From: Kiritimatiellia bacterium
GTDB taxonomy: Bacteria; Verrucomicrobiota; Kiritimatiellia; RFP12; UBA1067
DNA length: 61,508 bases
Assembly: GCA_017563185.1 (NCBI GenBank)
Contig: JAFXIL010000123.1
Location: 1-61,508, forward strand
Direction: 5' to 3'
Part shown: piece after piece, positions 3,038 through 46,795 of the stretch
Layout of the letters: every line of letters begins with the position of its first letter
How positions within the stretch are numbered: the stretch's first letter is position 1
The notes under the pieces: model-generated
Database searches by the model: none
What the model was told of the DNA's origin: nothing
Seen by the model: the letters and a program-made list of their open reading frames with translations, nothing else
Program-made: the position numbers and the translations under genes

Positions 3038-4380
3038 TGATGAAGTACGCGGCCAGTCCAGTAGTGCGCACGGTCGAACACATCTACGACGAGCTGGGAG
3101 AGCGCGTCGGCTCCGTGCAGGACGGAGTGGACTGGATCGAAGAGGAAACTCACTCCTTCGCGTGGGACGGCTGGAACATGGTGCTTGAGAGAATTGACTA
3201 TGCGGACTTTACAACGTCGTCGCGCGTCATAGAATACTATTGGGGTGACGACCTCTCCGGCTCGGAGCAGGGAGCGGGAGGAGTGGGCGGAATTCTCGCG
3301 GTCACGTGCGACGGCAAGTTCTACGTGCCGATCTACGGCGGCAATGGAAACATCATGGGCTATGTCGATGATAGCGGTGCATTCGTTGCAAAGTTCGTGT
3401 ACGATCCGTTTGGAGGTGTTGTGTCCATAGAGGGCGACATCGAGGAACCTCCTCCTCCGATGTCAGGCGAGGAGCCGCCATACGTTGACCGCACTGGCCT
3501 ACACGGAAGCGAATTCTCCTTCGGCTTCTCGACCAAGTACCACGACCGCGAGGTGGGCCTGATCGCCTACCAGCTGCGCAGCTACAGCCCCCGCCTCGGC
3601 CGCTGGCTCAACCGTGATCCGATTGAGGAAGAGGGCGGGGTGAATTTGTATGGGTTTGTAGATAATGAAGTGGTGTACAGAATTGATGCATATGGTTTGT
3701 GGAAGGGCACGAAGGAAAGTTATGGGTTCAAGCGTCGCGTTTACAAGAAATCACGAGACGTGAAATCGTTGAAATCGCTTGCGAATAGGGTGGGTTTGGA
3801 CATTGAATCAATATCTGCATGGGGACGTATAGAGACTTCTCCTGTTGCGTCAGAGACTTCTTCTTCCCCAATTACCCCTACAACGCCATCGTCTAAATAC
3901 TGTTATGTATCAGTGCCAAATATTTGGATAGAAGCAGATCTTTTGCGCGGAGGTAATGTTTACAATCGTGTGATAGTCAACCCTGGTGGCACTATAGGAT
4001 CGTTTTTTGGACAGACCTTAGGGCGTTGGGGATATCACACTGTTAAACCTAAAACGCCAAAAGAGTTGTTCCGAATAGTTGGAGAAAGCGGAAAGAATCT
4101 TTATGGGTTAACAGTTTACGCACATGGTAGTACAAATGGGTATATTGTGTCCTCAGACGAGAGAATGATTCATCAAACGAGATTGACGACATCAATTCGT
4201 AGTAAAGGTTATAGGATTGCCAGAGCAAATATGATGCAATGTTATAGTGCGATTCCTTTTGGATCTATACCAGTTGAACAATATAAAGAGATGCCGTTTG
4301 ACTATACTGCCGAGTGGACGAAAACCGCTGTAAAATTTTTTGGTTATGAAGGGATGAATATCATTGGTATAGATTTCTAA
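3037..4380 (+). CDS. RHS-core fragment with a second C-terminal tip (orphan RHS cassette)
   Basis: 447 residues with no signal peptide and only a short stretch of YD repeat (HIYDELGERVGS onward). The RHS core runs from about residue 60 to 210 and ends with RWLNRDPIEEEGG and NLYGFVDN. It resembles the 3' end of a larger rhs gene displaced behind the previous cassette, as in known Rhs orphan tips. The tip (about 215-447) is AT-rich and unrelated to the first tip in overall sequence. It also has a hydrophobic strand plus AHGS (His363) and a later MMQCYS (Cys402), again a caspase-like His/Cys pair. It is followed 10 bp later by a lipoprotein gene. It may be silent until recombined onto the long RHS gene. 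Function is inferred. Confidence 0.8.
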   Translation: MMKYAASPVVRTVEHIYDELGERVGSVQDGVDWIEEETHSFAWDGWNMVLERIDYADFTTSSRVIEYYWGDDLSGSEQGAGGVGGILAVTCDGKFYVPIYGGNGNIMGYVDDSGAFVAKFVYDPFGGVVSIEGDIEEPPPPMSGEEPPYVDRTGLHGSEFSFGFSTKYHDREVGLIAYQLRSYSPRLGRWLNRDPIEEEGGVNLYGFVDNEVVYRIDAYGLWKGTKESYGFKRRVYKKSRDVKSLKSLANRVGLDIESISAWGRIETSPVASETSSSPITPTTPSSKYCYVSVPNIWIEADLLRGGNVYNRVIVNPGGTIGSFFGQTLGRWGYHTVKPKTPKELFRIVGESGKNLYGLTVYAHGSTNGYIVSSDERMIHQTRLTTSIRSKGYRIARANMMQCYSAIPFGSIPVEQYKEMPFDYTAEWTKTAVKFFGYEGMNIIGIDF

Positions 4381-4390
4381 AGGAGTTATT

Positions 4391-4840
4391 ATGAATAATC
4401 GGAAGTTCTTCTCCCTAGTCACATTTCTGCTGATATTTACATCAGGGTGTGTAATACCTATTCCACATAAAAGAGTGTCGCGTGTGGGATGTGAAGGAGT
4501 AGTCCTTGATGCTAGAACTGGTAACCCAATTAGGGAGGCTACAGTTTGTGTCATGTATGGGGGCGCGACAAATATTGAGGCGCGAACAGATGCCAAGGGC
4601 CATTATAGAATCTGTGACGAGACAACTTGGCATGGGGCCTATTTTATTGGTGTCCCTGTAAGTTTCTCGTTATTTCCAACGCTTGACGCACCTCTGTATC
4701 CGCTCGCAATATCCGTGAGTGCGGAAGGGTATGACCGCTGGAAGTGGCAAGCTTGGATTGATATTGATTCCAACAGTGCATTTTCCGATGAATCAGCAGA
4801 AATTTTTCCTTCAACCATGCGGTTGAATTCAATTGAATGA
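4391..4840 (+). CDS. Lipoprotein with carboxypeptidase-regulatory-like fold
   Basis: 149 residues, preceded by a good AAGGAG ribosome site. The N-terminus is a lipoprotein signal: basic start, hydrophobic stretch, TSGC with the lipidated Cys at position 20. The mature part reads like a small beta-sandwich of the carboxypeptidase-regulatory/CnaB type: G-x-V-x-D-x-x-T-G-x-P-I-x-x-A near 36-52, then a TDAKGHY turn. Such folds are common in surface lipoproteins. Its place directly after an RHS tip suggests an outer-membrane or periplasmic immunity role, by inference. Its stop overlaps the next frame by ATGA. Confidence 0.6.
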   Translation: MNNRKFFSLVTFLLIFTSGCVIPIPHKRVSRVGCEGVVLDARTGNPIREATVCVMYGGATNIEARTDAKGHYRICDETTWHGAYFIGVPVSFSLFPTLDAPLYPLAISVSAEGYDRWKWQAWIDIDSNSAFSDESAEIFPSTMRLNSIE

Positions 4841-5889
4841 GAGTGTACCTAGAACGTATGAGTAGTAGATGTGCCATAGAAAAAAGAGCCGCTGACTTAA
4901 GACGAGGATCGGGCGGGCGCTGCATGCGGCGACCGCGTGGGTGGCGTGTCGCTCGAAGTCTGAAGTCCGAAGTCGGAAGTCGTGAAAACGCGCGGGTACT
5001 GTCCCCGAGGAGGCTGTTTTTAACGCAGAGCCGCAGAGGCGCGGAGGATGCGGAGGTATGTTTGAAGAAGCGCACGGGGAAAGTCCCTGCTGGGTTAATT
5101 TCCATCGAGAACGTCCTGTCTGCGCCTATGCCGTCGCTGGACGGCTCGCCGGTCCCGATTCCGGTAGGCCTTCACGGAAGAGAGTTCTCCTTCGGCTTCT
5201 CGACGAAGTACCACGACCGCGAGGTGGGCTTGATCGCCTACCAGCTGCGCAGCTACAGCCCCCGCCTCGGCCGCTGGCTCAACCGGGATCCGATTGAGGA
5301 AAAGGGAGGGGTGAATCTGTATGGGTTTGTAGATAATATGCCATCTGGCCTTTTTGATTTATCCGGAATGCATTCATTTAAATTTGTTGACCTTGGGTGG
5401 AGCTACGCCAATATTTTATCTGGTAACATAGTGGATATGTTAGGTACACCGATTACCGATCACATCGGAGTTACGCCATATTTTTTGATAGCAGAATCTA
5501 GATGTCTTTGTGAATCAGGTAAATACGTTCCAGACTATACTTTTAAGTTATTGGTTTATAGTTTGATTCAGGATTCAAATGATCCAGTCTGGACTAACAA
5601 TGCGTATGGCACAAAAATCGACGATCCTCGGGTTAAGAACAAGTGGAACTCATTTTGGTTTTTCACGGTAAGAAGGCGTATCAATCTTGTTTTGGAGCAT
5701 GAGGAACGGCATAGAAAACATGCTCGTGAGAGTTACGATGACATAATCGCTGCGTTAAAAGTGAAAGAAGAATTCCTCATGAGAGAAGAGTGCGAAAAGT
5801 GGGCTAAGGAAAAAATTAAATCTGCAAAATGGCTTTACGAAATGATCGAGAAAGAAAAAGCAGCGAATGTCGAGAAAGGTAGGAGGTAG
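4837..5889 (+). CDS. RHS-core fragment with a third, HExxH-containing tip (cassette with repeat-derived N-terminus)
   Basis: 350 residues in one open frame. The first ~85 residues are translated repeat DNA, including the widespread 'acgcagagccgcagagg' type repeat, and are probably not a natural protein start. From about residue 110 the RHS core (GLHGREFSFGFSTKY to RWLNRDPIEEKGG and NLYGFVDN) is nearly identical to the previous cassette. The AT-rich tip starts near residue 167. It carries LEHEERHRKH with His288, Glu289 and His292 forming HExxH, the zinc-binding signature of zincin metallopeptidases, in a helical, charged C-terminal half. A lipoprotein gene begins 3 bp after the stop. The true start is unknown. 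Metallopeptidase function is a motif-based guess. Confidence 0.65.
   Translation: MRVYLERMSSRCAIEKRAADLRRGSGGRCMRRPRGWRVARSLKSEVGSRENARVLSPRRLFLTQSRRGAEDAEVCLKKRTGKVPAGLISIENVLSAPMPSLDGSPVPIPVGLHGREFSFGFSTKYHDREVGLIAYQLRSYSPRLGRWLNRDPIEEKGGVNLYGFVDNMPSGLFDLSGMHSFKFVDLGWSYANILSGNIVDMLGTPITDHIGVTPYFLIAESRCLCESGKYVPDYTFKLLVYSLIQDSNDPVWTNNAYGTKIDDPRVKNKWNSFWFFTVRRRINLVLEHEERHRKHARESYDDIIAALKVKEEFLMREECEKWAKEKIKSAKWLYEMIEKEKAANVEKGRR
5022..5056 (+). repeat. Dispersed 'cgcagagccgcagaggcgcggagg' type repeat
   Basis: Purine-rich sequence with several near-repeats of gcagag/gcggagg. It matches a repeat style known from intergenic DNA of many environmental PVC genomes, where it is translated into spurious SRRGAEDAE-like peptides. 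Here it lies inside the open frame that precedes the third RHS core. Confidence 0.5.
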
Positions 5890-5892
5890 GCT

Positions 5893-6768
5893 ATGAAAAA
5901 ATTGGTGTCGTATGTTTTCTTGTGGACGGCAGTGGTGACTATCACGTCGGGCGGATGTCAGAGCATGACAGACGAGGCGCCAACGTCCTCTTTGCGAGAG
6001 CACTATTACTTTGTAAAAAAAATCGAACACAGGGCTTTGTCCATGGGGAGCGTTGCGACTAATGAGGTTCCAGATGTATGGCAAGGAAAAATATCGGACT
6101 ACTTTGGCATTCAGGATGCACTTGAGGCCTATAATATAGGCAGAACCATAACCCGTGAAGCCGCTTTCAGTCGGTCTGTTGCTTCATTGCCAGCATATAG
6201 CGAAACGAATATTGTCCAGCAGGCGTTCAAGGACGGAATCGACGATGGCACCGTAAATGACGTGAATGTCTTAAGACGCAGAGATCAAAGCCGAAGGCGG
6301 CTCCAGGAGAAGTTCTGGGGATGTGGAGTTGCCTCAGAGGAGGATGATCCTGAGGCTTGCGCTACTACGGATGGTGGTGTGGCAACTAATTATTATTCTG
6401 AATTGGCAGCTTCATATACATCTGGATATAAAAATGGGTGGCGTGTGGTCAATAGACTTAAGAAGTCGCCGATTTCCACGGTGGTTGGTTGTGGTGGGCC
6501 ATATCTTGGTCCGGATGCTATGAGGCGTGCGTATGTTTACGGGTGGTATTCGGCTTGTCATGATTATTTCGTCTTGCATGGTGATGAAGTACATTATGTC
6601 GATCAGACTGGTTGTATTCTTCAGGTAGGTCTTGATCCTTTTGATTATTACAGGATGAAGGTCGACCGTTTTAAAGAAAGGGAATTTGAGTTTCTACTTT
6701 TCTGTGCAAGGCAACGGCAAGGATTTTATAGTCAATTGTGGCAGTTGCTGTTCGTTTGCAGAAAATGA
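5893..6768 (+). CDS. Lipoprotein of unknown function following the third RHS tip
   Basis: 291 residues with a strong AGGAGG ribosome site. The signal sequence ends in SGGC, giving a lipidated Cys22. The rest is soluble and mixed helical, with several Cys and Gly-Tyr rich patches (for example YTSGYKNGW, YVYGWYSACHDY). I recognise no domain. The gene is AT-rich like the tip before it and starts 3 bp after that gene, so the two are co-transcribed. By position it is a candidate immunity protein for the HExxH tip. 291 residues is long for an immunity protein, so it may have another role. Confidence 0.6.
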   Translation: MKKLVSYVFLWTAVVTITSGGCQSMTDEAPTSSLREHYYFVKKIEHRALSMGSVATNEVPDVWQGKISDYFGIQDALEAYNIGRTITREAAFSRSVASLPAYSETNIVQQAFKDGIDDGTVNDVNVLRRRDQSRRRLQEKFWGCGVASEEDDPEACATTDGGVATNYYSELAASYTSGYKNGWRVVNRLKKSPISTVVGCGGPYLGPDAMRRAYVYGWYSACHDYFVLHGDEVHYVDQTGCILQVGLDPFDYYRMKVDRFKEREFEFLLFCARQRQGFYSQLWQLLFVCRK

Positions 6769-6856
6769 ACACGAACCACGTGTGGCGAAGGAAAAGAGAT
6801 TTGAGTAGAAAAGTAACAGAAGAGAGGAATTCCGACTTCAGACGTCGGACGTGGGC

Positions 6857-6938
6857 AGGATCGGGCGGGCGCTGCATGCGGCGGTCGCGCGGCGCGCGCG
6901 TTGTCGCCTCGCGAGGCCAGGAGTTGGAAGTCACGAAT
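6857..6938 (+). repeat. Dispersed GC-rich repeat, second copy of the block at 4905-4985
   Basis: The block beginning aggatcgggcgggcgctgc occurs here and at 4905. In both places it is followed by a 'gaagtc/ggaagtc' tail, and a shortened version (gtgcgctgcatacggctacc) occurs at 7163. Each copy lies between RHS cassettes, so the element marks cassette borders. Confidence 0.55.
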
Positions 6939-7002
6939 CGGGGAAGCGGCACTCTTGCCGCTTATGCATTGGCGCGTCATTGTGAAGCGACAAGAGTGTC
7001 GC
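6939..7002 (+). repeat. Palindromic element, copy 1 (right arm shortened)
   Basis: It contains the perfect hairpin aagcggca-ctct-tgccgctt and, 20 bp later, a second hairpin gcgaca-agag-tgtcgc. The right end is interrupted after gagtgtcgc, where RHS-type coding sequence resumes. Its sequence is almost the same as copy 2 at 7230-7300. Confidence 0.7.
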
Positions 7003-7156
7003 ATGACGCGCTTGGACGGCCTGTCTCCACGGCTGATTCGGAGTCCGTCGCGCGTATCTGGACGTACAACGAACGCTCCGAGATGACGGGATGCACTTCG
7101 AACGACGGCAGCTACTCGTACTTCTACGATTCGATCGGCAACCGCACGTCGGCTGG
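7002..7156 (+). pseudogene. RHS-repeat remnant between two palindromic elements
   Basis: The translation reads HDALGRPVSTADS, WTYNERSEMTG and YFYDSIGNRTS, which are typical YD/RHS repeat units. They have no core, no tip and no start. Both sides are repeat DNA. The frame stays open through the repeats and into the following lipoprotein, giving one 349-residue open frame (6738-7787) that is very unlikely to be a real protein. Confidence 0.65.
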
Positions 7157-7229
7157 ACTGGGCGTGCGCTGCATACGGCTACCACGCGGTGGGCATGTCG
7201 TTGGAAGTCGGAAGTCGGATGTCCCGAAT

Positions 7230-7300
7230 CGGGGAAGCGGCACTCTTGCCGCTTCTGCATTGGCGCGTCATTGTGAAGCGACAGGAGTGTCGCTTCCCCG
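7230..7300 (+). repeat. Palindromic element, copy 2 (71 bp, complete)
   Basis: The outer arms are cggggaagcggcactc at 7230-7245 and gagtgtcgcttccccg at 7285-7300, complementary over 16 positions with one mismatch. Each arm can also fold alone: aagcggca-ctct-tgccgctt on the left and aagcgaca-ggag-tgtcgctt on the right. The layout resembles REP/BIME elements. A related hairpin is found inside leuS at 45619-45644. Confidence 0.75.
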
Positions 7301-7349
7301 AAACGCGTGGGAACTGTCCCTGAGGAGTTCGGTCATAAGAAGATTCTTA

Positions 7350-7787
7350 TTGAACGGCTTAAGTTGTATCCTGTTGTCTGTAGCGTTAGGATGTAGACCG
7401 CAGGAAAGAGTTGAGTTGGATCATGCGCACGGCTGTGATCTGCTCGTCGAAACGAGTTCCAGTCCGCTTCAATATCGCGACATCCGCTATGTTGCCAAGG
7501 GAACGGAGAACCTGTGCAAATTGGTTGAACATTCCGTTACGAATTTTAAACAGAAGCGATTTGCATATGTGATGTGTCCATACTATCTTAAATATCGCAA
7601 TAGGATGATTGGTGTGACAGGGGATGGTGAGCTTGATGTCTCTCCTACGGATCCTTCAAAGCTACATGTTCGGGCAGATCATGTTCTAGTTATTCCGGAT
7701 TCTGTTACTTGTACACAAATAGTTACAGAAATTAGAGGAATTCTAAAAGAAGGGCAATATCCTTTCTTGCCTAGGAGTAAGCCATGA
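7350..7787 (+). CDS. Small lipoprotein after the degraded RHS cassette
   Basis: 145 residues from a TTG at 7350. The start is uncertain, because the frame continues upstream into repeat DNA and RR residues just before it could belong to the signal. The hydrophobic segment ends in ALGC, a plausible lipobox. The mature part has no domain I recognise. The DNA is AT-rich like the other tip/partner regions. In position it matches the lipoproteins after cassettes 2 and 3, but its RHS tip is missing, which suggests an orphan immunity gene. A tiny frame (7784-7873, 29 residues) starts at its ATGA overlap. Confidence 0.5.
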   Translation: MNGLSCILLSVALGCRPQERVELDHAHGCDLLVETSSSPLQYRDIRYVAKGTENLCKLVEHSVTNFKQKRFAYVMCPYYLKYRNRMIGVTGDGELDVSPTDPSKLHVRADHVLVIPDSVTCTQIVTEIRGILKEGQYPFLPRSKP

Positions 7788-7873
7788 AGCGAACGCAGAA
7801 TACGACTATCAACCGCTTGAAGACCAACGCGCGTGGACTGTTCCCGGCGAGTTTCGCTCTTCACTCCCTTTAG

Positions 7874-8138
7874 GACACACGACGACGAGATGCATTCGCT
7901 CGATCCATGCGACAGCTCCAACGAGAACGGCGCAGACGAGAACGAACCGGTGGAGCATGTTGCCGCAGACCGCGAAGCGCGCAGCGCGTTCTTCTTCTGA
8001 AGGCGGTCCGGCGAAATATATGTGACGCGATCGTCCCATGCCTCGGCGTCCATATATTTGTGGCAACTGCAAGATTTCAACATTAAAGTCACCGCAGAAT
8101 ACTAGCCACGAACCACGGCCCACTGGCTGCAGACCACG
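7874..8138. other. Intergenic region at the end of the RHS island
   Basis: No convincing gene. A minus-strand frame (7809-8123, 104 residues) contains one hydrophobic stretch but shows no ribosome site and no family resemblance. The convergent end of ung follows. Confidence 0.4.
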
Positions 8139-8816
8139 CTACCACTTCACGGGCGAGATGCCGTGGGCTACGAGATATTCATTGGCCATGCGAAAGTGGT
8201 TGCATCCGAAGAAGCCGCGCGCCGCCGAAAGCGGCGATGGGTGCGGCGACTCGAGAACGCAATGGCGCGTACGGTCGATCACGGCGCCCTTCTGCTGCGC
8301 GTAGGAGCCCCAGAGAAGGAACACTAGATTCGAGCGCCTGGCGGCAAGTGCCGCCACCGCCGCGTCGGTGAACCTCTCCCACCCGCGCCGCTGATGGCTT
8401 CCGGCGCGTCCCGCCTCGACGGTGAGAGTGGCGTTCAGCAGCAGCACGCCCTGGTCGGCCCAGGAAAGAAGATCGGGAATGCGAAGCGGCGCACCAAGCG
8501 CAGCCTCCTCTGGATACTCCGCGGCGAGCTCCTTCGCGATGTTGTAGAGCGAAGGAGGCGTGCGCACGCCCGGCGGCACGTAGAAGGCGAGCCCCTGCGC
8601 CTGGCCGGGCTCGTGATACGGATCCTGGCCAAGCACCACCACGCGCACCTTGTCGATCGGCGTGCGGTTGAACGCCTCGAAGATGAGGCGGCCGGGCGGA
8701 TAGACAGTTCCGCGCGCATACGCCGCGCGCACGAAGCGCACGAGCTCGGCGAAGTAAGGGCTGTCGAACTCGCCCTGCAGCGCCTCGCGCCACGAAGGCT
8801 CTATCTTCACTTCCAT
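8139..8816 (-). CDS. ung: Uracil-DNA glycosylase (family 1)
   Basis: 225 residues, the usual length for Ung. It removes uracil from DNA as the first step of base-excision repair in the cytoplasm. The catalytic water-activating motif GQDPYH is at residues 63-68 with the catalytic Asp. The DNA-intercalation motif HPSPLSA is at 192-198, and LLLNATLTV, the uracil-binding strand, is near 125. I chose the start at 8816 because GAGGG lies just upstream; an in-frame ATG at 8840 would overlap the preceding gene. It lies 8 bp downstream of the Gfo/Idh gene, so the two may be co-transcribed. Confidence 0.95.
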   Translation of the reverse strand: MEVKIEPSWREALQGEFDSPYFAELVRFVRAAYARGTVYPPGRLIFEAFNRTPIDKVRVVVLGQDPYHEPGQAQGLAFYVPPGVRTPPSLYNIAKELAAEYPEEAALGAPLRIPDLLSWADQGVLLLNATLTVEAGRAGSHQRRGWERFTDAAVAALAARRSNLVFLLWGSYAQQKGAVIDRTRHCVLESPHPSPLSAARGFFGCNHFRMANEYLVAHGISPVKW

Positions 8817-12707: not shown

Positions 12708-14291
12708 CTACTTTGCGTACTCCACGCACCTCAGCTCGCGCACAACCGTCACACGGATCATGCCGGGGAACTTCAGCTGCGCGGAGATGTCGCGGCATAT
12801 CTCGCCGGCGAGCTCCGCGGCGGCCTTGTCGCCAACCGCGTCGGGATCCACCATCACCCGCAGATCGCGTCCGGCCTGGACGGCGAATGCGTTGGCCACG
12901 CCAGGATGCGACTTCGCGATCTTCTCGAGATTCTCTAGGCGCTGGATGTAGTCGGCGGCCTTTTCCTGGCGTGCGCCAGGCCGCGCGCTCGAAATCGCAT
13001 CCGCCGCCGCGCAGATCACGCCGTACACTCCGCCGTCCACGCCCGCTTCGGAATGGTGCGCCGCCACGGCCGCGCAGACTCGTGCGTCTTCGCCGTGCGC
13101 CGCGAGGAACTCTGCGCCAAGAGCGGCGTGTGCGCCCTTCTTCTCCGCGGTGATGGCCTTGCCGATGTCGTGCAGGAACCCAACGCGCCGCGCAAGCGAG
13201 CCATCGAGCTTCATCTCCGCCGCGATGGTGCCAGAGAGAATCGCCACCTCCACCGAATGGCGCAGCACGTTCTGCGAGAACGACGTGCGGAAGCGCAGTT
13301 CGCCCATGAGGCGCAGCACCTCCGCAGGAAGGCCCGACACGCCCGCCTCCGCCGCGGCCTCCGCGCCGCATTCCTCGTTTTCCTTCTCCACGTTCTCACG
13401 TGCGGTCTCAACTGCGTGCTCGATGGAGGCGGGATGTATGCGCCCGTCGGCCACGAGCGCCTCGAGCGCGCGGCGCGCCACTTCGCGCCTGTGGGGGTCG
13501 AACGCGGAAAGCACCACCGCGTCGGGCGCGTCGTCCAGAAGCAGCGTCACGCCCGTCGCCGATTCGAACGCACGCACGTTGCGCCCGTCCCTGCCCACGA
13601 TGCGCCCCTTCATCTCGGCGCTCGGCATCAGCACCGCGGTTGTCGAAAGCTCGTTCACGTGGGCCACCGCGCAGCGCTGCACCGCCTCCGCCACGATCTT
13701 CGCGGCTATCGCCTCGCCCTGCTCGCGCGCGGCCTCCTGGATGCGGCGGCTGAGAATCGCCGCGTCGGCGCGCAGCTCCGCATTGGCGCGTGAGAGAATC
13801 TCGCGCCTCGCCTCGGCGTGCGTCATGCGCGAGAGCTCCTGCAGGCGGCGATCCGCGGCGATGTTCTTCTCCTCCGCCTCGCGGAGGCCCTTCGCGGCCT
13901 CGGCGCTCTTTGCGGCGGCCGCGGTCTCGCGCTCGTCGAGCGTAGCGGCCTTGCGGTCGAGATTCGCCTCGCGCTGCGTCTGGCGGTCTTCGATCGCCTG
14001 CAGCTCGGCGCGGCGCTTCTTTGTGGAGGCCTCGAACTCCTCGCGCACCTTCACCACCGTCGCGCGCGCCGCGATGTCGGCCTCCTTCAGGCGGGCCTTG
14101 ATCTCGGCCTCGGCCTCTTCGTCGCGAAGGCGCATCTTCTTCTCTATCGACTCCGCCTGCCAGCGGCCCACGAGACCGCGCAGAGCGTAGCCCAGCAGCA
14201 GGCCAAGGAGCAGCAGCACCGCGATGATGAGAATCGCGACGCCGTCAGAAAGGCCGTCCCACGTACTGCTGGATAGAGCGAAGAAGAGCAT
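12708..14291 (-). CDS. rny: Ribonuclease Y
   Basis: 527 residues, the usual length. It is a membrane-tethered endoribonuclease that initiates mRNA decay. Domains in order: a membrane anchor at 17-38, a long charged coiled coil at about 45-200, a KH RNA-binding domain with GRIVGRDGRN at 229-238, and an HD domain with LRHSVEVA at 343-350 and LHDIGKA at 373-379 (metal-binding His374-Asp375). The stop of the upstream GHKL ATPase gene is 6 bp before this start, so they are co-transcribed. Confidence 0.95.
   Translation of the reverse strand: MLFFALSSSTWDGLSDGVAILIIAVLLLLGLLLGYALRGLVGRWQAESIEKKMRLRDEEAEAEIKARLKEADIAARATVVKVREEFEASTKKRRAELQAIEDRQTQREANLDRKAATLDERETAAAAKSAEAAKGLREAEEKNIAADRRLQELSRMTHAEARREILSRANAELRADAAILSRRIQEAAREQGEAIAAKIVAEAVQRCAVAHVNELSTTAVLMPSAEMKGRIVGRDGRNVRAFESATGVTLLLDDAPDAVVLSAFDPHRREVARRALEALVADGRIHPASIEHAVETARENVEKENEECGAEAAAEAGVSGLPAEVLRLMGELRFRTSFSQNVLRHSVEVAILSGTIAAEMKLDGSLARRVGFLHDIGKAITAEKKGAHAALGAEFLAAHGEDARVCAAVAAHHSEAGVDGGVYGVICAAADAISSARPGARQEKAADYIQRLENLEKIAKSHPGVANAFAVQAGRDLRVMVDPDAVGDKAAAELAGEICRDISAQLKFPGMIRVTVVRELRCVEYAK

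Positions 14292-44134: not shown

Positions 44135-46795
<2,661 letters not shown>

What the first reader, a model, noticed from the sequence alone, without database searches (positions are those of the whole stretch)
6939..7300. Palindromic element of ~70 bp with nested hairpins
Copy 2 (7230-7300) has 16-bp outer arms with one mismatch, and each arm forms its own 8-bp hairpin with a 4-base loop. Copy 1 (6939-7002) is the same with a shortened right end, where RHS coding sequence resumes. It resembles REP/BIME elements moved by TnpA-REP enzymes.
Basis: seen in the sequence. Interest (0 to 1): 0.55.

Follow-up and report, generated by a model that had tools for sequence, protein, structure and literature searches.

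The report
Mobile REP hairpin pairs with transposase
The repeated 73-base palindrome is a small mobile DNA element (a pair of facing REP hairpins) spread through a rumen-type Kiritimatiellae genome, probably by a single-strand transposase whose gene lies among the same hairpins; one hairpin pair even sits in frame inside an essential gene.

Summary
Window 7229-7301 is a 73-bp inverted pair of 27-nt hairpin units with a 19-nt spacer; 6938-7002 is the same element cut at its right end. It is a REPIN (REP doublet) whose unit, TCGGGGAAGCGRCACTCYTGYCGCTTC, lacks the canonical GT[AG]G head. The genome holds seven places covering at least 65 of 73 nt, plus single units and other doublets. Its likely transposase gene, a RAYT (TnpA_REP-like), lies on contig C164 between two five-unit arrays of these hairpins; 99% identical genes in two congeners are flanked likewise. 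Seven more distant RAYT homologues (33-51% identical) carry other repeated hairpins with other heads, one canonical GTAG/GTGG. Copy 2 has three paralogous sites lacking exactly 73 bp. A third doublet (45580-45642) lies in frame in leuS, in a loop absent from the Thermus enzyme. Against: other congeners carry the hairpins with no adjacent RAYT found, and part of the spread may be passive, inside a larger repeat.

The parts
7229..7301 (+). REPIN copy 2, complete 73-bp element
7229..7255 (+). REP unit, left (27 nt, GGCA/TGCC stem variant)
7256..7274 (+). 19-nt spacer; same or nearly the same in the 14 non-redundant 19-nt-spaced doublets held
7275..7301 (-). REP unit, right (inverted; GACA/TGTC stem variant)
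6938..7002 (+). REPIN copy 1, lacking the last 8 bp
6998..7151 (+). RHS-like fragment abutting the cut end of copy 1
   Evidence: (94% to G000:C169:23106-23259)
6825..6937 (+). larger GAAGTC-type repeat that carries copy 1 at its 3' end
7143..7228 (+). second, diverged copy of that larger repeat, carrying copy 2
   Evidence: (D2, 73%)
4911..5012 (+). paralogous empty site: the larger repeat without a REPIN, continuous across the insertion point of copy 2
45580..45642 (.). REP doublet (units 45580-45606 minus, 45616-45642 plus) in frame inside leuS
44135..46795 (-). leucyl-tRNA synthetase gene (886 aa); the REP doublet codes for residues about 385-406

Best explanation
The element is a REPIN, a non-autonomous mobile unit made of two inverted 27-nt REP hairpins around a spacer. 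Shown: the family, its sharp 27-nt unit with compensatory stem changes, the doublet architecture, a RAYT gene lying inside an array of the same units, and paralogous sites with and without the element. Inferred: when the strand is single (for example lagging-strand template), the unit folds; the RAYT (a Y1/HUH single-strand transposase) recognises the hairpin plus its 5' head, nicks through its tyrosine and strand-transfers the unit to a new site without duplicating the target. Copy 2 would be such an insertion into a larger GAAGTC-type repeat; copy 1 was later cut when an RHS-like fragment joined it; the doublet at 45580-45642 would be an insertion into leuS that kept the frame.
For: Genome copies. 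Unit: 22 of 27 positions are at least 95% one base in 289 units and conservation stops at both ends; in 290 units (75 distinct) the variable stem positions pair: 12/21 is G-C 161, A-T 116, G-T 8, unpaired 5; 14/19 is A-T 245, G-C 41, G-T 3, unpaired 1. RAYT at L133:13362-13991(-): PF01797 over cut-off, NF047646 REP_Tyr_transpos 1.7e-16, best solved relative 4er8 'TnpArep' (E 0.0019); HxH and Tyr align with E. coli RayT. Ten units flank it within about 0.3 kb. 99% identical RAYTs in G005 and G013 are flanked by 8 and 6 units. Flank test: 10 of 13 RAYT-search loci hold 3-12 copies of one hairpin stem within 500 bp of the gene; 24 of 2,930 random 1.6-kb stretches do. Empty sites: three, with no base gained or lost at the junction. 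Two copies (C6 and G013:C128) have neither flank like the larger repeat, so the REPIN itself is a unit. LeuRS: query residues 384-422 face 12 residues of the Thermus enzyme, where the doublet lies.
Against: Only 1 of 35 REPIN queries gave such empty sites, and they are paralogous repeats at 76-82% identity, not orthologous loci. In 11 of 14 REPIN sites the left flank resembles the larger repeat, so some spread may be passive; in several sites about 15 nt follow the REPIN before that repeat resumes (two by BLAST; two by eye), so the inserted length varies. Only 3 of 13 loci found with this RAYT carry this REP, while G007 (35 matches) and G014 (32 matches) carry the REP and none of 20 Y1-gene stretches fetched from them does. 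The RAYT is below the NF047646 cut-off (60.4 of 80 bits). The head is not GTAG. The genomes are draft assemblies.
Confidence: 0.85

Rival explanations
1. The palindrome is a passive passenger: the larger GAAGTC-type repeat, RHS cassettes or recombination spread it, and the RAYT no longer moves it.
For: 11 of 14 REPIN sites have left flanks like the larger repeat; several copies sit at the same point of it; in two congeners rich in the REP none of the 20 Y1 stretches fetched carries it.
Against: C6 and G013:C128 show neither flank of the larger repeat; the unit ends are sharp over 289 units; a doublet lies inside leuS; sister RAYTs keep repeated hairpins beside them.
Confidence: 0.1
2. The hairpins are kept as RNA structures (terminator or mRNA-end stabiliser) and are multi-copy for that reason.
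For: Strong RNA fold, z -8.9; such roles are named for REPs in the abstract of PMC3733652.
Against: No T run follows copy 2; 0 Rfam matches at gathering score in the window; a doublet inside leuS and arrays round a Y1 gene are not explained. A later RNA role would not exclude mobility.
Confidence: 0.03
3. It is a MITE of a DDE transposon or the remnant end of an IS200/IS605 element.
For: Inverted arms; NF033573 transpos_IS200 also matches the RAYT weakly (27.3 of 55 bits).
Against: No target duplication at the three empty-site comparisons; each arm is itself a hairpin; the linked gene scores higher as REP-associated (60.4 against 27.3 bits).
Confidence: 0.02

Closest known systems
REPIN (REP doublet forming a hairpin), Pseudomonas fluorescens SBW25, Bertels and Rainey 2011 (PMC3116915, passages read)
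   Same: Inverted pair of REPs around a spacer, single-strand hairpin, RAYT association, doublet proposed as the mobile unit
   Different: Head TCGGGG instead of GT[AG]G; far fewer copies; Kiritimatiellae host
REPtron / TnpA_REP of E. coli K-12 (rayT, b0228; solved as 4er8)
   Same: Y1 HUH enzyme with aligned HxH, W, Q, R and Tyr; gene flanked by inverted REPs of two subtypes
   Different: Longer N-terminal part (209 aa against 165); the positions aligned with E100/H101 are D/T; regular stems without a bulge; no GTAG
TIRtrons with GGGGWSAS motif (PMC3733652, section 16 read)
   Same: Tyrosine transposase flanked by non-GTAG inverted repeats, many organised in dimers or clusters
   Different: The unit reads GGGGAAGC and does not fit GGGGWSAS; the repeats here are REP-like hairpins, not long TIRs
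Subclass 2.6 and class 3 TnpA_Y1 genes with atypical REP-like structures (PMC6006769, section 12 read)
   Same: No GT[AG]G head at the REP-like structure
   Different: Those are said to have weaker structures; here stems are strong and the W/Q/R contact residues are kept; the subclass was not assigned here

Membership tests
REP / REPIN | Short palindromic unit repeated at many places | tested here: met
   but 46 units held in the own genome, fewer than the usual over 100 per genome named in the abstract of PMC2817692
REP / REPIN | Inverted doublet with spacer that folds as one hairpin | tested here: met
REP / REPIN | GT[AG]G tetranucleotide at the hairpin foot | tested here: not met
   each of the six head positions TCGGGG is at least 96% that base in 289 units (the pattern used to collect them biases this)
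REP / REPIN | Linked RAYT gene | tested here: met
REP / REPIN | Extragenic position | tested here: inconclusive
   not surveyed; one doublet lies inside leuS
REP / REPIN | Moves as a unit | tested here: inconclusive
   three paralogous empty sites for 1 of 35 REPIN queries; no orthologous pair
RAYT / TnpA_REP | HUH motif and single catalytic tyrosine | tested here: met
   10 of 10 aligned homologues keep HxH and the Tyr aligned with E. coli RayT
RAYT / TnpA_REP | Score over the NCBIfam NF047646 cut-off | tested here: not met
   60.4 bits against 80; PF01797 is over its cut-off
RAYT / TnpA_REP | Nicks and joins its cognate REP | not testable with these tools
   needs purified protein
MITE of a DDE transposon | Target-site duplication | tested here: not met
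   junctions show none
TIRtron with GGGGWSAS | GGGGWSAS motif | tested here: not met
   unit reads GGGGAAGC

The most novel reading that the evidence does not exclude
Within this one genus a single RAYT clade has repeatedly changed the head (guide) sequence of its hairpins: TCGGGG, YTGGGG(G), GTAG/GTGG, CTGGGA, ACGTTT and CGTA-type heads flank homologous RAYTs. The residues aligned with E. coli W94-R104, part of which PMC6006769 reports as GTAG contacts, change in step: WQ..YDH with GTAG/GTGG, WQ..WD[TR] with the GGGG heads, WM..YDR with CTGGGA, WM..Y[NS]R with ACGTTT and CGTA. This would be a natural series of retargeted single-strand transposases.
Probability: 0.4. Interest if true: 0.6.

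Novelty: new variant of a known kind. Interest (0 to 1): 0.42.

Why it matters
REPs and their RAYTs are best studied in Proteobacteria with a GTAG head. Here a REPtron without that head is found in Kiritimatiellae, together with related RAYTs that each keep a differently headed hairpin. That makes the open question of how RAYTs choose their guide and cleavage site testable by comparing natural pairs. The leuS insertion shows that such a doublet can be tolerated in a gene expected to be essential.

Tried and rejected
Rfam over the whole window: no match. Orthologous empty sites: window 5900-8300 has no long colinear match in the genus. C14, C142, C182 and G013:C128 flanks were searched in close congeners: C168/G005:C283 and C182/G013:C2 are filled on both sides, C142/G013:C211 is filled with the upstream flank colinear only, and in G005 synteny stops on both sides of the C14 and C182 elements, so no clean pair came out. 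I considered that all hairpins belong to one RAYT and rejected it: other RAYT homologues carry other hairpins. Two single-unit junction hits were weak and are not used. Literature: Kiritimatiell with 'REP element', 'REP sequences', or 'transposase' plus 'palindromic repeats' gave 0 papers; 'REP-associated tyrosine transposase' with Verrucomicrob gave only PMC3733652. The library is open-licence PMC only.

Full report
What is there. The window is contig C75 of a 3.2-Mb draft genome, G000. The taxon of the window itself is inferred from these. Window 7229-7301 is a 73-bp element: two inverted 27-nt units, TCGGGGAAGCGRCACTCYTGYCGCTTC, 19 nt apart. Copy 1 (6938-7002) lacks the last 8 bp and abuts an RHS-like fragment. 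Both fold far better than shuffles, and 5 units occur in the window where 0.00 are expected.

The family. BLAST of the 73-mer against the own genome lists seven places covering at least 65 nt (C75 twice, C168, C142, C139, C14, C6), a 45-nt partial (C182), doublets with another spacer at C164 and C107, and single units or pairs at C46, C61, C78, C85, C95, C111 and window 45580-45642. In 178 non-redundant loci (1.21 Mb, many of them chosen because they hold the unit) 290 units were found with up to 4 mismatches. Conservation is confined to 27 positions, and the variable stem positions keep pairing. Doublets with tails inward are most often 17 or 19 nt apart. The 19-nt spacer is nearly identical in all 14 non-redundant cases, and the 17-nt type is the one beside the transposase gene.

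The transposase. A search with PF01797 finds four Y1 genes in the own genome. One, L133:13362-13991 (-), 209 aa, lies between five units on one side (13156-13351) and five on the other (14067-14262). It matches PF01797 over cut-off and NF047646 REP-associated tyrosine transposase below its cut-off (60.4 of 80 bits); its best solved relative by sequence is 4er8, TnpArep. The HxH motif, W, Q, R and a tyrosine align with E. coli RayT (that this tyrosine, Y115, is the catalytic one in E. coli is recalled). The other three Y1 genes have none of these units in the stretches fetched.

Relatives. Of 16 genomes of the genus, own included, 13 match the 73-mer at E 1e-6 and 10 match the RAYT protein at E 1e-5. 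The RAYT search gave 13 places. The three at 99-100% identity (G000, G005, G013) carry 10, 8 and 6 of the units; the other ten carry none. Seven of these ten, aligned over most of their length at 33-51% identity, carry another hairpin repeated 3-12 times within 500 bp; the three partial matches do not. In total 10 of 13 loci have such repeats, against 24 of 2,930 random 1.6-kb stretches, drawn mostly from loci that already hold REPs. The locus with three copies (G014) is the weakest, and one of the three other own-genome Y1 genes (C146) also reached three. The hairpins and heads differ: TCGGGG (own), YTGGGG(G) (G003), GTAG or GTGG (G006:C19), CTGGGA (G014, G010:C98, G015; the last two nearly alike), ACGTTT (G010:C24), CGTA-type (G006:C409). 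So each RAYT keeps its own REP, as described for Proteobacteria (PMC2817692, passages read; PMC6006769, section 12 read).

Movement. Joining the flanks of copy 2 gives continuous alignments to three sites with no gap at the junction: window 4911-5012, G005:C489 (L199) and G005:C376 (L194). These are other copies of a larger GAAGTC-type repeat, so they are paralogous. Only 1 of 35 REPIN queries and 2 of 113 single-unit queries (weak, not used) gave junction-spanning hits. Left flanks resemble the larger repeat in 11 of 14 REPIN sites; C142, C6 and G013:C128 do not, and at C6 and G013:C128 the right flank does not either. Hence part of the spread can be passive, but the REPIN also stands alone with the same ends. 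In some sites about 15 nt lie between the REPIN and the resumption of the larger repeat (G005:C489 and C200a by BLAST; C200b and C139 by eye).

A doublet in leuS. Window 45580-45642 lies in an 886-aa leucyl-tRNA synthetase (PF13603 2.7e-53, PF00133 8.8e-45). It encodes residues about 385-406. In the two alignments printed, both with the Thermus enzyme (species recalled), query 384-422 faces residues 368-379 of that enzyme, and 16 of the 17 listed hits are split into two stretches. The doublet thus sits in a lineage-specific loop of the editing-domain region and keeps the frame. No leuS of a congener was among the loci held.

Results against. G007 and G014 carry 35 and 32 matches to the element, many of them single units among the rows listed, but none of the 20 Y1 stretches fetched from them has the unit; their RAYT may be lost, unassembled or elsewhere. 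In G005, synteny stops at both the C14 and the C182 elements, which may be rearrangement or assembly. Copy number is lower than in classic cases.

Comparison and verdict. It works like a REPIN with a REPtron. Strict membership in the GTAG-headed REP superfamily fails on the head (tested, not met), while RAYT linkage and doublet form are met; non-GTAG REP-like structures at Y1 genes are known (PMC6006769; TIRtrons, PMC3733652). REPs are known in Verrucomicrobia (O. terrae, PMC3733652, passages read). I found no paper on Kiritimatiellae REPs. I rate it a new variant of a known kind. The most interesting lead is the in-step change of hairpin heads and contact residues within one RAYT clade: eight RAYT lineages, few independent points, and no phylogenetic test made.

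Noticed in passing
window 45580-45642 in leuS (44135-46795): REP doublet in frame inside leucyl-tRNA synthetase, in a loop absent from the Thermus enzyme.
   Followed up: partly
window 6825-6937, 7143-7228, 4890-5030: Larger GAAGTC-rich repeat with inverted ends, MITE-like, with copies at C121, C36, C177, C139 and in G005/G013; nature unknown.
   Followed up: partly
window 3040-7787: Series of RHS-like C-terminal frames each followed by a small ORF, separated by the repeats; possibly RHS tip cassettes.
   Followed up: no
L019 943-2292 (G000:C146): Y1 transposase-like protein with a long C-terminal extension; its N-terminal frame reads about 20-aa repeats, so repeated DNA lies upstream.
   Followed up: no
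L005 and L239 (G000:C14, G013:C41): Where G000 has about 220 bp with a REPIN, G013 has about 10.3 kb between the same flanks.
   Followed up: no
L133 right end and L134 (G000:C164, C107): Both contigs end in similar REP arrays (97% over 196 bp), so the REPtron may continue into C107.
   Followed up: partly
L096 (Opitutales MAG, JAFSAO010000021.1): Single exact core unit in a contig labelled Opitutales; transfer, binning error or chance.
   Followed up: no
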